A stretch of DNA of 50,020 bases. Source: a virus. The stretch spans positions 1 to 50,020 of IMG/VR virus record IMGVR_UViG_3300033144_003463; one strand, given 5' to 3'. How positions within the stretch are numbered: the first letter of the stretch is position 1; each line of letters begins with the position of its first letter. The position numbers were made by a program, and so were the translations under genes. Below, piece after piece: positions 16,191 to 29,523 of the stretch. The notes beneath the pieces are model-generated. The model was not told the origin of the DNA. It saw only the letters and a program-made list of their open reading frames with translations, and did not search any database.

Positions 16191-16424
16191 ATGCTATGCC
16201 ACCCAAAAGAGATACAAAAACTCCCCGAATATGCTAATTTCAAGGAAGATTATAAAAAATATAGGGAACTAGAATCTTCACGAAATGATCAATACCGGGC
16301 AAGGCAAAACTTAATAAAGAAATATGCCAAGTATGGGATATTTTTAACTCCAAAAGAATGTTCGGAAAAATGTCCTTATTATAAAATATGTAAAAAACAC
16401 GATAACCTATGGGGCGACTATTGA
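16191..16424 (+). CDS. Small Cys-cluster protein
   Basis: This 77-residue protein has a charged helical first half and ends with CSEKCPYYKICKKHD, four possible metal ligands (three Cys, one His). It overlaps the next gene by 16 bases. Start ATG 16191 follows directly on a tandem repeat and has no visible ribosome site. Function unknown. Confidence 0.55.
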   Translation: MLCHPKEIQKLPEYANFKEDYKKYRELESSRNDQYRARQNLIKKYAKYGIFLTPKECSEKCPYYKICKKHDNLWGDY

Positions 16425-16750
16425 AAAAATGTAAAATATGTGATATGGTGTTTGAAGACACTACTAGGAATCAAAACAAAAAGTATTGCTCTGCTAAATG
16501 TAGGTATGTAGCCGGGAACGAGCAAAAACGATTAAAAAAGAATGAACTACTTATATATAGCAGAAAATGTGGGAAATGTGGTAAGAAATGGGTATTTGAT
16601 TTTTGTCCTATTGACCATTGTAGAAAATACGCAGAAATGAAATGTCCCTATTGTGGTTATTCGGTTAGAGAGGATATTCGTAGTGCTATGGAGTATCAAG
16701 AGTTTGAAGATTTGGTAAGTTATTGTGATGATAGTTTGGCAGTAATTTAA
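16409..16750 (+). CDS. Multi-zinc-finger protein
   Basis: This 113-residue protein has three Cys pairs or clusters: CKICDMVFED with CSAKC (FCS/treble-clef-like, residues 8-31), CGKCGKKW, and CPYCG near the C terminus. The first motif recalls zinc fingers of phage HNH and terminase-linked proteins. Probably nucleic-acid binding. It ends the P3 transcription block; a terminator follows. Confidence 0.65.
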   Translation: MGRLLKKCKICDMVFEDTTRNQNKKYCSAKCRYVAGNEQKRLKKNELLIYSRKCGKCGKKWVFDFCPIDHCRKYAEMKCPYCGYSVREDIRSAMEYQEFEDLVSYCDDSLAVI

Positions 16751-16756
16751 TAAAAG

Positions 16757-16765
16757 TTATCCACA
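16757..16765 (+). promoter_or_regulatory. DnaA box / operator, copy 3
   Basis: TTATCCACA within AAAAGTTATCCACAGGTAG. Here the terminator at 16775 lies between the box and promoter P4, so the distance to the -35 is 51 bp instead of 19-20. Confidence 0.65.
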
Positions 16766-16774
16766 GGTAGCTAG

Positions 16775-16800
16775 AATCCCTTTGTTTATAAGGGATTTTT
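16775..16800 (+). terminator. Rho-independent terminator
   Basis: AATCCCTT (16775-16782) pairs with AAGGGATT (16790-16797), eight pairs with a 7-nt loop, and runs into TTTTT. It ends the block of small early genes just before promoter P4. Confidence 0.8.
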
Positions 16801-16807
16801 GGGTGGC

Positions 16808-16836
16808 TTGTATTTTTTTGTAATGTATGCTATACT
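16808..16836 (+). promoter_or_regulatory. Phage promoter P4 (amidoligase operon)
   Basis: -35 TTGTAT (16808-16813), 17-bp spacer, extended -10 TGCTATACT (TATACT at 16831-16836). The 5' leader of about 200 nt is unusually long for this genome and starts with a hairpin (16841-16867). Confidence 0.8.
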
Positions 16837-16840
16837 GATG

Positions 16841-16867
16841 TTGTTCGGGTGAGAAGACCATTTGCCC
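16841..16867 (+). promoter_or_regulatory. Leader hairpin, copy A
   Basis: TTGTTCGGGTGAG...TTTGCCC, in which GGG can pair with CCC, lies at the 5' end of the P4 transcript. A closely related sequence (TTGTCCGGGTGAG...CTTGCCC) stands at 22030-22058. The rest of the leader up to 17040 has no gene and no other clear element. Confidence 0.4.
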
Positions 16868-17040
16868 TTTTGACAATTTGCGAGTGATAACGAGAACATA
16901 GGATATTTTTTTAACAAGGGACTATCTAAATGGAATCCCTAAAATCGTTTATTTTTTAAGCACTAATCCTAATCGGTTCATTGGCTTATTGTGTTCAAAC
17001 AAGAGGGCGAAATGGTTTTATTATAATTAAACAGAAAAAA

Positions 17041-17517
17041 ATGGCAAAAAAGAAGAAAACTAGGAAGAAAATAATAGAACTAGATATTAAAAAGCGAGGA
17101 ATGTCAGTTGTATTAGGTATCAAGGCAGAAAAAAGATTAGAGGATTTTTTCCGCAATATGTCAGAGGGGAAAACTGCTGTATCTTCTAAATGGCGGGACA
17201 ATAGCGGGAATGGGTTGCTCTTCTATAAGGGGAACGATAAGTTGGAACTTTTTAGAAAGCAATTAGTTGAATCCGGGATATACTGCTTTGACGATTTTGG
17301 TAGTGGGTTTTTTCATAAAGAATTAGAAGATCCGAATGTAGCTTTATTAAGAATAGTAGGAATAGGCAAGGGGGTAAAGATCAAAACAGACGATTTTATA
17401 GCTTTTGAAGATTTGAAATTATATGTAGAGAAATTGGCAAGAGTAGTAAAAGAGATTTATCAAAACTTTTTGCTAGATACGAATGTTAAGGCAAGAATAA
17501 GCTATGATATGGACTAA
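17041..17517 (+). CDS. Hypothetical basic protein, first gene of the amidoligase operon
   Basis: ATG 17041 follows the leader ATTAAACAGAAAAAA and gives 158 residues; an in-frame upstream start at 16981 is less likely. It has a Lys-rich N terminus (MAKKKKTRKKIIELDIKKRG). Its last base is the first base of the amidoligase ATG (TAATG), so the two are translationally coupled. No family recognised; it may be a partner or substrate of the downstream enzymes. Confidence 0.6.
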   Translation: MAKKKKTRKKIIELDIKKRGMSVVLGIKAEKRLEDFFRNMSEGKTAVSSKWRDNSGNGLLFYKGNDKLELFRKQLVESGIYCFDDFGSGFFHKELEDPNVALLRIVGIGKGVKIKTDDFIAFEDLKLYVEKLARVVKEIYQNFLLDTNVKARISYDMD

Positions 17518-18317
17518 TGGAAAATATACCTAGATTATTATTATCAGATTTAGAATTGGCAGTAGAGATAGAGGGGGCTTTTTCTACCGAGTTGGCAGAA
17601 TTGGTTGATGTTAATAAATGGGGAACTTGGGCTGATGATGGTTCTGTTGATCACGACTTGATTGATGAATTAGATTATCCCATAGACGCAGAGGAGTTTC
17701 GCTCTGGGGTTGTTGGTTATAAAAAGCTATATAAGATATTGAGGGCTTTTAGCAAACCTAACTATGCTTCAAATGATAGTTGCGGAATACACCTACATAT
17801 AAGTGCCAAGGATTGTTCTCCTAAGATATTGGCAAGGATTGTAAGCGATTTAGATTTTATGGAACATATAAGAGACGTTGCTAGAAATAATTTTGGGGAA
17901 GAACAAAGTAGAAGATTAGGGGAAGATAACGAGTATTGTCAATTTTTTAAGGGTTCGGGCGATTTATCTCATTGTATCAGGAATCGTGATAAGTATAGAT
18001 TTATGCGTTATCACCCTAGCTACAATACTCTTGAATGGCGATTTTTTTCGGCTCTTGAAAATGGGAATGATAATGTTGATAACATAAGATTGTTTCTAAA
18101 AGAGTTTCTAAAACACATAAATGGTTGTAGAACTATTAAAAACATAACAGAAATTGAGGTAAATGATGAAGAGCAAGTAGTAAAATCGTTTGAGTTGAAT
18201 CTTGGAAAAGGATTTAGCCCAAGTGGCAGAGTGGTTGAGTTAGAGCATTCTTTCAAAGCGTCGGGGCATTATGTTAATATGGATATACCCTTTTATGTTA
18301 TGGCTAAAAAAGAATAA
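17517..18317 (+). CDS. Amidoligase (ATP-grasp-like COOH-NH2 ligase)
   Basis: In this 266-residue protein the characteristic elements of the putative amidoligase family are present in order: an N-terminal LAVEIEGAF Glu pair, WADDGSV (38-44), SCGIHLHIS (88-96), and the C-terminal YRFMRYHPSYNTLEWRFF (TLEWRF at 171-176). The family is predicted to form amide or isopeptide bonds at the expense of ATP. It is known to occur next to class II glutamine amidotransferases, and the next gene here is one. It may modify a peptide, protein or cell-wall component. The substrate is unknown. Confidence 0.75.
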   Translation: MENIPRLLLSDLELAVEIEGAFSTELAELVDVNKWGTWADDGSVDHDLIDELDYPIDAEEFRSGVVGYKKLYKILRAFSKPNYASNDSCGIHLHISAKDCSPKILARIVSDLDFMEHIRDVARNNFGEEQSRRLGEDNEYCQFFKGSGDLSHCIRNRDKYRFMRYHPSYNTLEWRFFSALENGNDNVDNIRLFLKEFLKHINGCRTIKNITEIEVNDEEQVVKSFELNLGKGFSPSGRVVELEHSFKASGHYVNMDIPFYVMAKKE

Positions 18318-18331
18318 TTAAAATAAAAAAT

Positions 18332-19372
18332 ATGTGCTTTATATCAAGCGTTTTCAGAACAAAGGAACGAGATAAGGAGGTTGAGAGAGTTTTGTTGAAT
18401 AATTTTGCTTCACAAATGAATATGAATAGTGAGGGGTTTTCTCTGCTATCAAAAAATCAGAATAATAAGGGGTATATAAGGAAGAGGGGACTAGATCCAA
18501 AGCTATTTTATAAAGAATTGGAAATGGCAGTTAAAAAAGAGGTTTTATTTACTCATTTTAGATTGGCTACCTCTGGGGGAATCAGTATAAGAAATACTCA
18601 TTTTTGGCAGTTGGGTGATTATTATTTCGGACACAATGGAATAATGGGCTATAATTATAACACAATGAGTTATGGCTACAAGCAAAAATATGAGAGCAAA
18701 GAGGTTGATAGTTTTGTATTTTTCAAAAAGCTATATGGAATGATAAGAACAGAAACTGATGTAAACTTGATAGCTGATTTATTAAAGGGGCTGAAAGACG
18801 AGGATTTACTCCACGGAAGAGGATTTTTGATAGACAAAAAGAATAATCTAGTTTATACCTTTGGGGATTTACACGCTTATCTTATAAATGGAAATTATCT
18901 TGTAATGTCTTCTGTTGGTATGGATTGGACAGATTATAAAATGAGAAAATATGGTGATTTATCTTTTGTTAGATTTAAGGAGTTGTTTGATGTTGAGAAA
19001 ACAAAAATACTTGAAGACGAATCTTTTGTTGCTACCCTAGGCGATTGGAAGTTTAAGAGGATTCCTAGTGGCGATTCTTTAATAGGGGCAGATTATGGGC
19101 AACCAAAATCCTTTGAGGGCGGATCAGGCAAGATAGAGTTAGAGGAAATTGACAAAGAGATTGAGGAAGAAATTAAGGAAAAGAAAGACGAGATAAAAGC
19201 AAGGGAAATGGTGATAGATTATGATAATGATGATGATTTTGCCAAAGCGTTTGGGTATGACTTAGATAGAAACCTATATGACGAACCGACTTACAATGAT
19301 AGGAATCTCCCCATAGAATCCCCGGAGGTTATAAAAGAAGTTAACCGGTTATTAGAAAAAAATGCTGGGTAA
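18332..19372 (+). CDS. Class II glutamine amidotransferase (Ntn hydrolase)
   Basis: In this 346-residue protein the chain begins Met-Cys, so Cys2 becomes the N-terminal nucleophile after Met removal. HFRLATSGG (75-83) and FGHNGIMG (99-106) are the matching GATase-II signatures that bind glutamine. The catalytic domain spans about residues 1-230. The C-terminal part is acidic and coiled-coil-like (EEIDKEIEEEIKEKKDEIKA). It could supply ammonia to, or transfer a gamma-glutamyl group with, the amidoligase encoded 14 bases upstream. Confidence 0.8.
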   Translation: MCFISSVFRTKERDKEVERVLLNNFASQMNMNSEGFSLLSKNQNNKGYIRKRGLDPKLFYKELEMAVKKEVLFTHFRLATSGGISIRNTHFWQLGDYYFGHNGIMGYNYNTMSYGYKQKYESKEVDSFVFFKKLYGMIRTETDVNLIADLLKGLKDEDLLHGRGFLIDKKNNLVYTFGDLHAYLINGNYLVMSSVGMDWTDYKMRKYGDLSFVRFKELFDVEKTKILEDESFVATLGDWKFKRIPSGDSLIGADYGQPKSFEGGSGKIELEEIDKEIEEEIKEKKDEIKAREMVIDYDNDDDFAKAFGYDLDRNLYDEPTYNDRNLPIESPEVIKEVNRLLEKNAG

Positions 19373-19610
19373 TAGATACTATTATAAAATACTTATAGGT
19401 GTCCCCTCAGGTAGTCAAATGAGGGGTGAAAACTCGTATTGGGAGGGGTTTGTTGTTAGCCCTTATGAGTTTACTCGTTTCAAAGTTGAAATCCAAGAAG
19501 CAAATAAAAAGGTTGGGGCAGGATCGGTTAGTAAAATGGTATCTTATTGTCGCAGAAATGGTATTTTCCGTAAAATTGAAATGGGGGCGTTGTCCTATAC
19601 ATTAAAATGA
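19362..19610 (+). CDS. Hypothetical protein of the amidoligase operon
   Basis: This 82-residue protein overlaps the GATase gene by 11 bases and the next gene by four (ATGA). Basic, mixed alpha/beta (YYYKILIGVPSGSQ..FEV-like strand pattern). No family recognised. The tight coupling suggests a function linked to the two enzymes. Confidence 0.6.
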   Translation: MLGNRYYYKILIGVPSGSQMRGENSYWEGFVVSPYEFTRFKVEIQEANKKVGAGSVSKMVSYCRRNGIFRKIEMGALSYTLK

Positions 19611-19927
19611 TAAAACAAGATAATATAAAACTTATAACCCTTAATTGGAGTATTGATGTAAATGTTCACGGCTATCCAGAAAATACTTTTGGTGATGTGA
19701 GGTATGAAAGAAAAGAGGATAGTGGAAATGTAGAGTATGGGACTTATACCTTTATGGCTAGGCAAAATTGTAGTGATAATGTGTTGGACAATATGATTAG
19801 AGAGCTTTATAGAACCCTTAATCATAGGCAGAATAGGCAAATGCCCTATTCTTTAATAAAGATTTTAGAGAACGCAAACTTGATTAGACATTTTAATAAG
19901 GATAATCGTTGGAGTTATAACTTATGA
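19607..19927 (+). CDS. Hypothetical protein of the amidoligase operon
   Basis: This 106-residue protein has an ATG that overlaps the preceding stop and a 3' end that overlaps the next ATG by four bases. Beta-rich first half (IKLITLNWSIDVNVHGYPE), helical second half (NVLDNMIRELYRTLNHRQNRQ). No family recognised. Confidence 0.6.
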   Translation: MIKQDNIKLITLNWSIDVNVHGYPENTFGDVRYERKEDSGNVEYGTYTFMARQNCSDNVLDNMIRELYRTLNHRQNRQMPYSLIKILENANLIRHFNKDNRWSYNL

Positions 19928-20487
19928 AAACAATAAAGCTAACAAAAGAAGAAATTGGTAGCATTGAAAAAAAACTACAAAACATATATAGGCAGTATTG
20001 TATAATCCAAGTTCCGGGAATGGATTGTGCCATTCGTGAGGTAGCTTGTAGAATGGCAAAAATAATAAGTGCCGGAAAAAAAATACAAAAAGATTCTACA
20101 AGGATATCGGAAGAAGAAGCTAGTAATGGACTAAATGTATCGCAACGAATAGCACAGAAAATGATAGAACAACAACAGCAACAGCGAGAATATGACAGGC
20201 AGTTTCGGGTTATGTTTGCGGGAAATGAGGACGATACATTAACTACATTAGACGATAACGAAATAGAAAATAGTGTGCTTAACGAACCTAGTGAGTCGGT
20301 GGGATTGTCGGGGACAACAACAGCAACAACGATTGATCCGGGAACAACTATAAATATGGGACATACCCACGAAATCCCGGAAGCAATATCAGCGTTGCCC
20401 GAAATTAGTGAAGAGCCGGGCGAAGAATTGGAAGAGCCGGACGAAGAGTTAAGGGGATTAAGGCGTTGGGTTGGTGGCTATAATTAG
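19924..20487 (+). CDS. Hypothetical low-complexity protein, last gene of the amidoligase operon
   Basis: This 187-residue protein has a helical N-terminal 75 residues with a Gln-rich stretch (KMIEQQQQQREYDRQ). A Thr/Gly/Pro/Glu-rich segment follows (GTTTATTIDPGTTIN, EEPGEELEEPDEELRG), ending in WVGGYN. The disordered tail and short conserved-looking C terminus make it a conceivable modification substrate of the amidoligase. That is speculation. Confidence 0.55.
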   Translation: MKTIKLTKEEIGSIEKKLQNIYRQYCIIQVPGMDCAIREVACRMAKIISAGKKIQKDSTRISEEEASNGLNVSQRIAQKMIEQQQQQREYDRQFRVMFAGNEDDTLTTLDDNEIENSVLNEPSESVGLSGTTTATTIDPGTTINMGHTHEIPEAISALPEISEEPGEELEEPDEELRGLRRWVGGYN

Positions 20488-28410: not shown

Positions 28411-28629
28411 ATGTTTGATAAAACTTATTACGAGAACAAAAGGAATTCTTTAGAGACCAGAATGGTGAAAGTAAAAGATAGATTTATTATGGAACAGGTA
28501 GAGAATGTCAAAAGACTTTTATCTGATCAACAGGAGATCCAGGCAGATTATAATGAAGTGGTAAAGAGAATGCAAGATGATAAAGAATTGGAAGACAAAG
28601 AGAATAAAAAGGGAAAGAAAAAGAAATAA
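28411..28629 (+). CDS. Small coiled-coil head-region protein
   Basis: This 72-residue protein is coiled-coil-like throughout (VKDRFIMEQVENVKRLLSDQQEIQADYNEVVKRMQ) and ends in KENKKGKKKK. Starts two bases after the previous stop with leader AATAAAAAATAAT. Possibly an internal head or scaffold-accessory protein. Confidence 0.55.
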   Translation: MFDKTYYENKRNSLETRMVKVKDRFIMEQVENVKRLLSDQQEIQADYNEVVKRMQDDKELEDKENKKGKKKK

Positions 28630-28821
28630 AGGTTTGAAAAAGGTGGAGTTAACCCATAGGGGTTAGCTTCGCCATTCGGTGAATTAATTTCACTACTTAA
28701 CGGTTGGGGTTTATCCGCCTTTCCCCTGGTTGTTGAGTGGTGAACTTAGTTCATCAGAACTATATAAAGGTCGCCATCTTGGGGTGAATGCCCAAGTCCA
28801 AATAATTAACATTTTAAAAAC
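28630..28821 (+). promoter_or_regulatory. Highly structured gap before the scaffold gene
   Basis: This 192-base gap has no gene but several hairpins: TTAACCC-ATA-GGGGTTA, GTGAA-TTAA-TTTCAC, TGAAC-TTA-GTTCA (alternatively AGTTC-ATCA-GAACT), and CTTGGG-GTGAAT-GCCCAAG. An AAAGGTCG motif (28766-28773) and a standard leader (AATAATTAACATTTTAAAAAC) precede ATG 28822. It may be a transcript-processing or expression-control region for the head genes. Confidence 0.5.
28766..28773 (+). promoter_or_regulatory. AAAGGTCG leader motif, copy 5
   Basis: AAAGGTCG lies 48 bases before ATG 28822, just upstream of the last hairpin of the structured gap. The longer distance than in other copies is accounted for by that hairpin. 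Confidence 0.4.
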
Positions 28822-29523
28822 ATGGCAGACGAAAAAACATTAGGCTTAAACACAGGAGAAGCAGAAACTCCTGCTGGTGATGGCCAACCAGAACAAAAAA
28901 CTAAGGAAGTAACATCTCCAGAAGTAGATGCTTTATCTAATGATCTTGATCGATTTATCGGTGAAGATGTAGATGATAAAGGACTTATGGAAATAGGAGA
29001 TGATGACGAAACACTTGTTATTTCCAAAACTAAGTTAGAGAAATTGCAAAAGGATCGGGACAACTATCGTGAAGGTTTAAAATCCGTGAAGGGAAAGTTA
29101 AAAGATTTCAAGAAACAGGATAAACCAGAAGATAAACCCAAACCAAAGCAACAGCCGAAGGGTGACTTTCTTAAACGGTCAGACTACTATAAGGCCATAG
29201 AGAAACAAGCTATTAGTACTGCGTGTCTAGATGAATCGTTGGAAAAGAATTGGAGTGAGATTATTCCATTCTATTCTCCAAGGCGAGGAATTGAGACAGT
29301 AGACGATATTGTTGCTGATTTAAAGGATGCACAACATCTTTTCAATAAGAACAATCCGACTGAAACTGAAGAGGACCCAGGAGTTCTCTCTGATCTTTCA
29401 GCCGATAATGCCAAACAAGTAGGCGCCTCTACTAGTGGAGATAAACAAAAGAAACGAAAGCATATTCTTCCTAGAAGAACACCCGTACAAGAATGGTACG
29501 GTAAAGTCGAAGAAAAAAAATAA
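28822..29523 (+). CDS. Probable scaffolding protein
   Basis: This 233-residue protein is acidic and disordered in its first half (Glu/Pro/Thr-rich). A coiled-coil segment follows (KTKLEKLQKDRDNYREGLKSVKGKLKDFKKQ), then a Pro/Lys-rich linker and a basic C terminus (KQKKRKHILPRRTP). Position directly before the decoration and capsid genes, together with this composition, is typical of scaffolding proteins that shape the prohead. Confidence 0.65.
   Translation: MADEKTLGLNTGEAETPAGDGQPEQKTKEVTSPEVDALSNDLDRFIGEDVDDKGLMEIGDDDETLVISKTKLEKLQKDRDNYREGLKSVKGKLKDFKKQDKPEDKPKPKQQPKGDFLKRSDYYKAIEKQAISTACLDESLEKNWSEIIPFYSPRRGIETVDDIVADLKDAQHLFNKNNPTETEEDPGVLSDLSADNAKQVGASTSGDKQKKRKHILPRRTPVQEWYGKVEEKK

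What the first reader, a model, noticed from the sequence alone, without database searches (positions are those of the whole stretch)
17041..20487. Phage operon built on an amidoligase and a class II glutamine amidotransferase
The amidoligase (17517) and the GATase-II with N-terminal Cys2 (18332) are adjacent, and the remaining genes overlap each other by a few bases. Comparative genomics by Iyer and co-workers on amidoligases predicts that such pairs form novel amide or isopeptide bonds. Here the pair has its own promoter (P4), a long leader and three extra proteins of no known family, one with a disordered acidic tail that could be the substrate. This looks like a self-contained modification system aimed at host wall, host protein or phage particle.
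Basis: partly seen in the sequence, partly recalled or inferred. Interest (0 to 1): 0.85.

Follow-up and report, generated by a model that had tools for sequence, protein, structure and literature searches.

The report
Phage amidoligase and glutamine-amidotransferase gene pair
A virus of bacteria carries a divergent copy of a two-enzyme module, common in phages, that probably takes nitrogen from glutamine and attaches it to an unidentified acid group; the module is already known, its target is not, and the unfamiliar genes around it are not part of it.

Summary
A 266-aa amidoligase (17517-18317) and a 346-aa class-II glutamine amidotransferase (GATase, 18332-19372) are adjacent, and both keep the residues conserved in their families. 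Both proteins are very divergent: both fall below Pfam's cut-offs and are recovered by profiles built from phage relatives.

The pair is a widespread phage module. Searching IMG/VR with the GATase alone gave 52 loci; 50 have an amidoligase directly upstream on the same strand (27 of 27 after dereplication, median gap 3 nt). In GTDB genomes it was 16 of 17, nearly all Bacteroidales. Published phages (phiEco32, LUZ24, tf, RIO-1 types, OM43 phages) carry the same two enzymes. No third gene is conserved, and the four extra window proteins (158, 82, 106 and 187 aa) occur in none of these viral loci. The "self-contained operon with its own substrate protein" is therefore unsupported.

Most likely mechanism: the GATase releases ammonia from glutamine and the amidoligase activates a carboxylate with ATP and amidates it. 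The target is unknown; peptidoglycan is the published guess. A divergent new member of a known kind, interest about 0.3.

The parts
17517..18317 (+). Amidoligase (266 aa), divergent member of the phage amidoligase family, GS/GCS-like carboxylate-amine ligase fold
   Evidence: phrog_2443 E 3.7e-10; leave-one-out HMM E 2.2e-13; E17, E19, D41, S43, E51, C89-G90-x-H92-x-H94, E173, R175 conserved across 37 relatives; AF2 model matches glutamine synthetase Z 9.3, YbdK Z 7.9, plant glutamate-cysteine ligase Z 7.8, Dop Z 7.6
18332..19372 (+). Class-II (Ntn-type) glutamine amidotransferase (346 aa): catalytic core about residues 2-180, then an acidic C-terminal region without a counterpart in the aligned relatives
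   Evidence: Cys2, HFRLAT, GHNG and D126 conserved; leave-one-out HMM E 1.4e-6; family profile hits GlmS 4e-30, PurF, asparagine synthetase, EgtC; AF2 model too poor to test the fold (pLDDT 42.7)
17041..17517 (+). 158-aa basic protein of unknown family, overlaps the amidoligase start by 1 nt; not part of the conserved module
   Evidence: no match
19362..19610 (+). 82-aa protein of unknown family; not part of the conserved module
   Evidence: no match; Pfam matches below cut-off only
19607..19927 (+). 106-aa protein of unknown family; not part of the conserved module
   Evidence: no match
19924..20487 (+).
   Evidence: no match; only E 0.03 to 0.2 in PHROGs
16751..17040 (+). 290-nt non-coding gap: terminator-like repeat 16775-16797, weak promoter-like site 16808-16836 (TTGTAT-17-TATACT, TG before the second hexamer), then a leader that folds strongly (16848-17046)
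   Evidence: no Rfam family

Best explanation
A two-enzyme, glutamine-dependent amidation module carried by a phage of a probable Bacteroidota host. The GATase matures by loss of Met1, so that Cys2 is the N-terminal nucleophile; it hydrolyses glutamine to glutamate and ammonia. The amidoligase, a carboxylate-amine ligase of the glutamine-synthetase/glutamate-cysteine-ligase superfamily, phosphorylates a carboxylate with ATP-Mg and lets the ammonia attack it, giving an amide. This matches asparagine synthetase or MurT-GatD in logic but is built from other folds. Shown here: the two families, intact conserved residues, and near-obligate pairing in conserved order. Inferred: ammonia transfer between the two, and amide formation. 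Unknown: the acceptor. A carboxylate of the host peptidoglycan stem peptide, changed during infection to affect wall or superinfection, is the published guess and the leading candidate (about 35%). A protein or a small metabolite is the alternative.
For: GATase-seeded search: 52 viral loci, 50 with an amidoligase directly upstream on the same strand; 27 of 27 after dereplication, gaps -85 to 390 nt, median 3. 16 of 17 in bacterial genomes. One phage contig carries two tandem copies of the pair (L138). Amidoligase-seeded search independently finds GATase next to distant amidoligases, with at least five label changes forced on the tree. Residues conserved in the relatives are kept in both window proteins. 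Fold match to carboxylate-amine ligases. GATase profile hits ammonia-channelling enzymes GlmS, PurF and AsnB. Same enzymes in Arthrobacter phage Shrooms and in published phages.
Against: No activity is shown for any member of the phage family in the papers found. About half of phage amidoligases have a gamma-glutamyl cyclotransferase-like partner and no nearby GATase (24 of 49 dereplicated), so the ligase does not always need a GATase and may join a larger amine than ammonia. The window amidoligase is a very long branch (6.25) with changes at two otherwise conserved positions (R159 to K, N164 to R). The GATase fold could not be modelled.
Confidence: 0.6

Rival explanations
1. The amidoligase joins an amino acid or amine (gamma-glutamyl or isopeptide bond), and the Ntn enzyme is a hydrolase that trims or reverses that product rather than an ammonia donor, in the way EgtC removes glutamate from a gamma-glutamyl intermediate.
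For: In amidoligase-seeded loci the GATase and a GGCT-like protein behave as alternative partners: 24 GGCT, 13 GATase, 0 both, 12 neither of 49 (Fisher p 3e-5, which ignores relatedness). GGCT acts on gamma-glutamyl amides, so a GATase in its place could also act on one. The GATase profile also matches EgtC, an Ntn amidohydrolase. The superfamily includes gamma-glutamyl ligases.
Against: The exclusion is not absolute: L134 has GATase plus GGCT, and the published LUZ24/UFV-P2 cassette has both. The best PDB profile match is GlmS.
Confidence: 0.22
2. Auxiliary nitrogen metabolism: the pair changes glutamine/glutamate flux in the infected cell and has no dedicated macromolecular target.
For: Proposed for Planctomycetes Phage-ZRK32, which carries amidoligase, GATase, glutathione synthase and gamma-glutamylcyclotransferase (PMC10945688).
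Against: The passages read describe adding phage to cultures, not enzyme assays. A fixed two-gene order with a dedicated ligase, and Cys-rich N-terminal extensions in 12 of 27 paired amidoligases, fit a specific acceptor better than bulk metabolism.
Confidence: 0.1
3. A larger six-gene modification system in which one of the small window proteins is the substrate or a specificity factor.
For: Overlapping or closely packed genes; one protein with an acidic, low-complexity tail.
Against: No relative of any of the four proteins in the 89 loci held after the amidoligase-seeded search, in 52 GATase-seeded loci or in 50,697 phage records. No third gene is conserved beside the pair. The window is densely packed with + strand genes throughout, so tight spacing is not specific.
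Confidence: 0.05

Closest known systems
phiEco32 / LUZ24 / tf / UFV-P2 / RIO-1-type 'peptidoglycan modification cassette' (PMC5498523, PMC3890496, PMC3517423; predicted by Iyer et al. 2009)
   Same: Phage-encoded amidoligase with a class-II GATase in the early/replication region; function predicted, not shown
   Different: Those cassettes also carry a COOH-NH2 ligase (PF14395), a GGCT/AIG2 protein and an ATP-grasp enzyme; PF14395 and PF06094 gave no match in this window record
Two-gene amidoligase + GATase module of Arthrobacter Laroyevirus phages (Shrooms gp97/gp98); also OM43 phages
   Same: In Shrooms: same order, same strand, adjacent; OM43 phages carry both enzymes
   Different: The Shrooms GATase belongs to another sub-group (MCGI..., phrog_14519); only about 24% identity to the window GATase
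Amidoligase + GATase pairs of Bacteroidales (pro)phages, the 'MC[IV]I ... N-x-x-G-x-G ... HFRxATxG' GATase group
   Same: Closest GATase group; amidoligase upstream in 15 of the 16 genome loci where that GATase was called and in 50 of 52 viral loci
   Different: 19-27% identity to the window GATase; 12 of 27 paired amidoligases have Cys-rich N-terminal extensions that the window copy lacks
MurT-GatD peptidoglycan amidation pair (Staphylococcus aureus, PMC3267633)
   Same: Two co-transcribed genes, ligase plus glutamine amidotransferase, amidate a carboxylate (works like)
   Different: From general knowledge: Mur-ligase fold plus class-I-type GATase; no homology to either window protein is claimed

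Membership tests
Phage amidoligase family (Amidoligase_2 / phrog_2443) | Sequence profile match | tested here: met
   phrog_2443 E 3.7e-10; leave-one-out HMM E 2.2e-13 against best decoy 0.72. The Pfam PF12224 score is below its curated cut-off: 17.3 against 22 bits
Phage amidoligase family (Amidoligase_2 / phrog_2443) | Conserved acidic, His and Arg residues of the carboxylate-amine ligase site | tested here: met
   E17, E19, D41, S43, E51, H92, H94, E173, R175 kept; flanking R159 and N164 are K and R in the window
Phage amidoligase family (Amidoligase_2 / phrog_2443) | Glutamine-synthetase/GCS-like fold | tested here: met
   AF2 model pLDDT 66.4; glutamine synthetases, YbdK, GCL and Dop dominate the VIA list at Z 7.6-9.3, rmsd 3.8-4.9; Foldseek best YbdK, prob 0.87 but E only 0.038. 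Modest scores, consistent superfamily
Phage amidoligase family (Amidoligase_2 / phrog_2443) | ATP-dependent amide formation | not testable with these tools
   needs an assay
Class-II glutamine amidotransferase | N-terminal Cys2 after Met1, H-x-R-x-x-T, H-N-G, Asp | tested here: met
   C2, H75, R77, T80, H101-N102-G103, D126
Class-II glutamine amidotransferase | Sequence profile match | tested here: met
   leave-one-out HMM of phage GATases E 1.4e-6, best decoy 0.61; Pfam GATase_4 only 12.1 bits against cut-off 23
Class-II glutamine amidotransferase | Ntn-hydrolase fold | tested here: inconclusive
   AF2 model pLDDT 42.7; PurF at Z 4.2 over 144 residues, not above unrelated rows
phiEco32/LUZ24/RIO-1-type cassette | Amidoligase plus class-II GATase | tested here: met
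phiEco32/LUZ24/RIO-1-type cassette | COOH-NH2 ligase PF14395 | tested here: not met
   no match at E up to 1 in the record; the record may be a fragment
phiEco32/LUZ24/RIO-1-type cassette | GGCT/AIG2-type cyclotransferase | tested here: not met
   no match at E up to 1 with PF06094; the record may be a fragment
phiEco32/LUZ24/RIO-1-type cassette | ATP-grasp enzyme in the cassette | tested here: inconclusive
   no Pfam match to one among the operon proteins; the whole record was not scanned for every ATP-grasp family
phiEco32/LUZ24/RIO-1-type cassette | Peptidoglycan as target | not testable with these tools
   only predicted in the literature too
   the fold search ranks GS-like ligases throughout; absence of a fold from such a list does not exclude it formally, but the family assignment is GS-like
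Pup-type protein conjugation (PafA/Dop) | Small modifier ending in G-G-Gln/Glu | tested here: not met
   the 187-aa protein ends ...WVGGYN

The most novel reading that the evidence does not exclude
The amidoligase, from the superfamily that includes PafA/Dop, covalently attaches a protein tag, such as the acidic 187-aa protein encoded nearby, to host or phage proteins; the Ntn enzyme deamidates the tag or removes it. This would be a phage-encoded conjugation system analogous to pupylation.
Probability: 0.03. Interest if true: 0.85.

Novelty: new member of a known kind. Interest (0 to 1): 0.3.

Why it matters
The pair itself is known, but its chemistry has stayed a prediction since 2009 in the papers found here. 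The comparison narrows the question: the minimal unit is exactly two genes, the GATase of this group rarely occurs without the amidoligase, and a gamma-glutamyl cyclotransferase tends to replace the GATase in other phages. Many relatives lie in Bacteroidales genomes, some from cultured isolates, where a two-gene deletion and wall or proteome mass spectrometry could find the target.

Tried and rejected
Single-sequence scans with the amidoligase, GATase, TerL and the 158-aa protein in viral contigs found no relatives, and the GATase alone found none in genomes; the alignment-based scans did. A two-row GATase alignment (A2) also failed. phmmer against PDB sequences gave nothing useful for either protein alone, and the amidoligase profile gave none either. 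The GATase model was too poor for a fold search to mean anything. PADLOC: no match, so a known defence system is not indicated. A special promoter was rejected as evidence: the counts equal chance. The Pfam Methyltransf_3 and RWP-RK matches of the 82-aa protein were rejected as below cut-off. Rfam: no family in the window; the one sub-threshold leader match (SNORD62, E 0.32) was rejected. Pupylation-like conjugation was considered: the tail of the 187-aa protein does not end in GGQ/GGE, and it has no relatives to test. No ATP-grasp fold appeared among the fold matches listed for the amidoligase. Iyer et al. 2009 (PMC3268129) and the mycobacteriophage Marvin paper are not held and are cited only through papers that quote them.
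Full report
What is there. The window is a 50,020-base viral record from IMG/VR with a terminase, a DnaB-like helicase, an exonuclease and head genes of a tailed phage. The six ORFs of the finding exist as described and score best in their own frame by codon usage. The region is not an island: nearly the whole window is packed with + strand genes, and another gene starts 54 nt after the last of the six. The gap of 290 nt upstream is real. It holds a terminator-like repeat and a weak promoter-like site, but promoter-like sites in the region are no more common than in shuffles.

The amidoligase. The 266-aa protein matches phrog_2443 (E 3.7e-10) but falls short of Pfam's cut-off. A profile of 36 phage relatives, built without the window protein, finds it at E 2.2e-13 among all ORFs of the window and shuffled copies, where the best decoy scores 0.72. 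Invariant E, D, S, C-G-H, H, E and R residues are all kept. The AlphaFold model (pLDDT 66) matches YbdK and glutamine synthetase in Foldseek, though weakly (E 0.04-0.05). With VIA-align it matches glutamine synthetases, YbdK, plant glutamate-cysteine ligase and depupylase Dop at Z 7.6-9.3. This is the glutamine-synthetase-like carboxylate-amine ligase superfamily, not ATP-grasp. The protein is very divergent: its branch in the family tree is the longest.

The amidotransferase. The 346-aa protein has Cys2, HFRLAT, GHNG and the downstream Asp in the right order. A leave-one-out profile finds it at E 1.4e-6. The profile of its family hits GlmS at 4e-30, then PurF, asparagine synthetase and EgtC. 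The fold itself could not be modelled. The acidic C-terminal part has no clear counterpart in the aligned relatives.

The pair is a module. Starting from the amidoligase and dereplicating to 49 loci, 13 have a GATase nearby, 24 have a gamma-glutamyl-cyclotransferase-like gene, none has both within 2.5 kb, and 12 have neither, some of them near contig ends. On the tree the partner labels change several times, so pairing with GATase is not a single inheritance. Starting from the GATase sequence alone, 50 of 52 viral loci have an amidoligase directly upstream on the same strand. One exception, L108, begins 17 nt before the GATase; the other, L139, gave no GATase call at that threshold. After dereplication it is 27 of 27, with a median gap of 3 nt. 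In bacterial genomes it is 16 of 17. A clear exception is the Bifidobacterium phage L007, with a GATase and no amidoligase. One contig has two tandem pairs. No third gene is conserved next to the pair.

The extra genes. The 158-, 82-, 106- and 187-aa proteins have no relative in these viral loci, in viral contigs (158-aa protein) or in annotated phages. They share the neighbourhood with the pair, but nothing ties them to it. The 187-aa protein is acidic with a low-complexity tail, which by itself is not evidence of being a substrate.

Host. The window uses almost no Shine-Dalgarno sites (2 of 55 genes) and has A-rich sequence before its start codons, as expected for Bacteroidota (general knowledge). 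The nearest GATases in GTDB genomes are in Bacteroidales in 15 of 17 cases. A Bacteroidota host is likely but not proven.

Mechanism. By family logic (established knowledge of class-II GATases and the GS superfamily), the GATase supplies ammonia from glutamine and the amidoligase activates a carboxylate as acyl-phosphate and amidates it. That step is inferred. The acceptor is unknown. Published authors suggest peptidoglycan and superinfection exclusion (PMC5498523, PMC10580990, PMC11318856) or nitrogen metabolism (PMC10945688), without enzyme assays in the passages read. Two weak hints on the target came up. Twelve of 27 paired amidoligases have Cys-rich N-terminal extensions against 5 of 149 other ORFs, which fits recognition of a macromolecule. 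In five or six of 27 loci the pair sits just upstream of a scaffold-like gene, with the major capsid gene about 2.6 kb away, which leaves virion modification open.

Verdict. It is a divergent member of a known and widespread phage module whose biochemical target remains open.

Noticed in passing
window 16848-17046: The leader upstream of the 158-aa gene folds to -53.9 kcal/mol (z -4.5) with a near-continuous closing stem of about 19 bp; no Rfam family. About six of 499 genome windows are similarly structured, so it is notable but not unique.
   Followed up: partly
window 28601-28800: Strongest predicted RNA structure of the window (-70.9 kcal/mol, z -6.3), mostly in the non-coding gap before the gene at 28822, near the head genes.
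   Followed up: no
window, all genes: Shine-Dalgarno motifs are nearly absent (2 of 55 genes) and A-rich tracts precede starts, pointing to a Bacteroidota-like host.
   Followed up: partly
L103, L127, L129, L132, L133, L140 and others: Amidoligases paired with this GATase group often carry Cys-rich, zinc-ribbon-like N-terminal extensions with up to nine CxxC motifs; Pfam does not recognise the extension in the two scanned (L103, L127).
   Followed up: partly
L138:3448-9484: Two tandem, diverged amidoligase-GATase pairs in one viral contig.
   Followed up: no
L090, L095, L100, L110, L114, L118: The amidoligase-GATase pair lies upstream of scaffold-like, decoration-like and major capsid (Phage_cap_E) genes in this group of phages.
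   Followed up: partly
amidoligase-seeded loci L004-L089: GGCT-like cyclotransferase and GATase behave as near-exclusive alternative partners of phage amidoligases (24, 13, 0 both), with exceptions such as L134 and the LUZ24-type cassette.
   Followed up: partly
window 16409-16750: A small protein with several CxxC pairs (zf-CGNR-like, just over the Pfam cut-off) sits just upstream of the leader; whether it relates to the Cys-rich extensions of other amidoligases is unknown.
   Followed up: no
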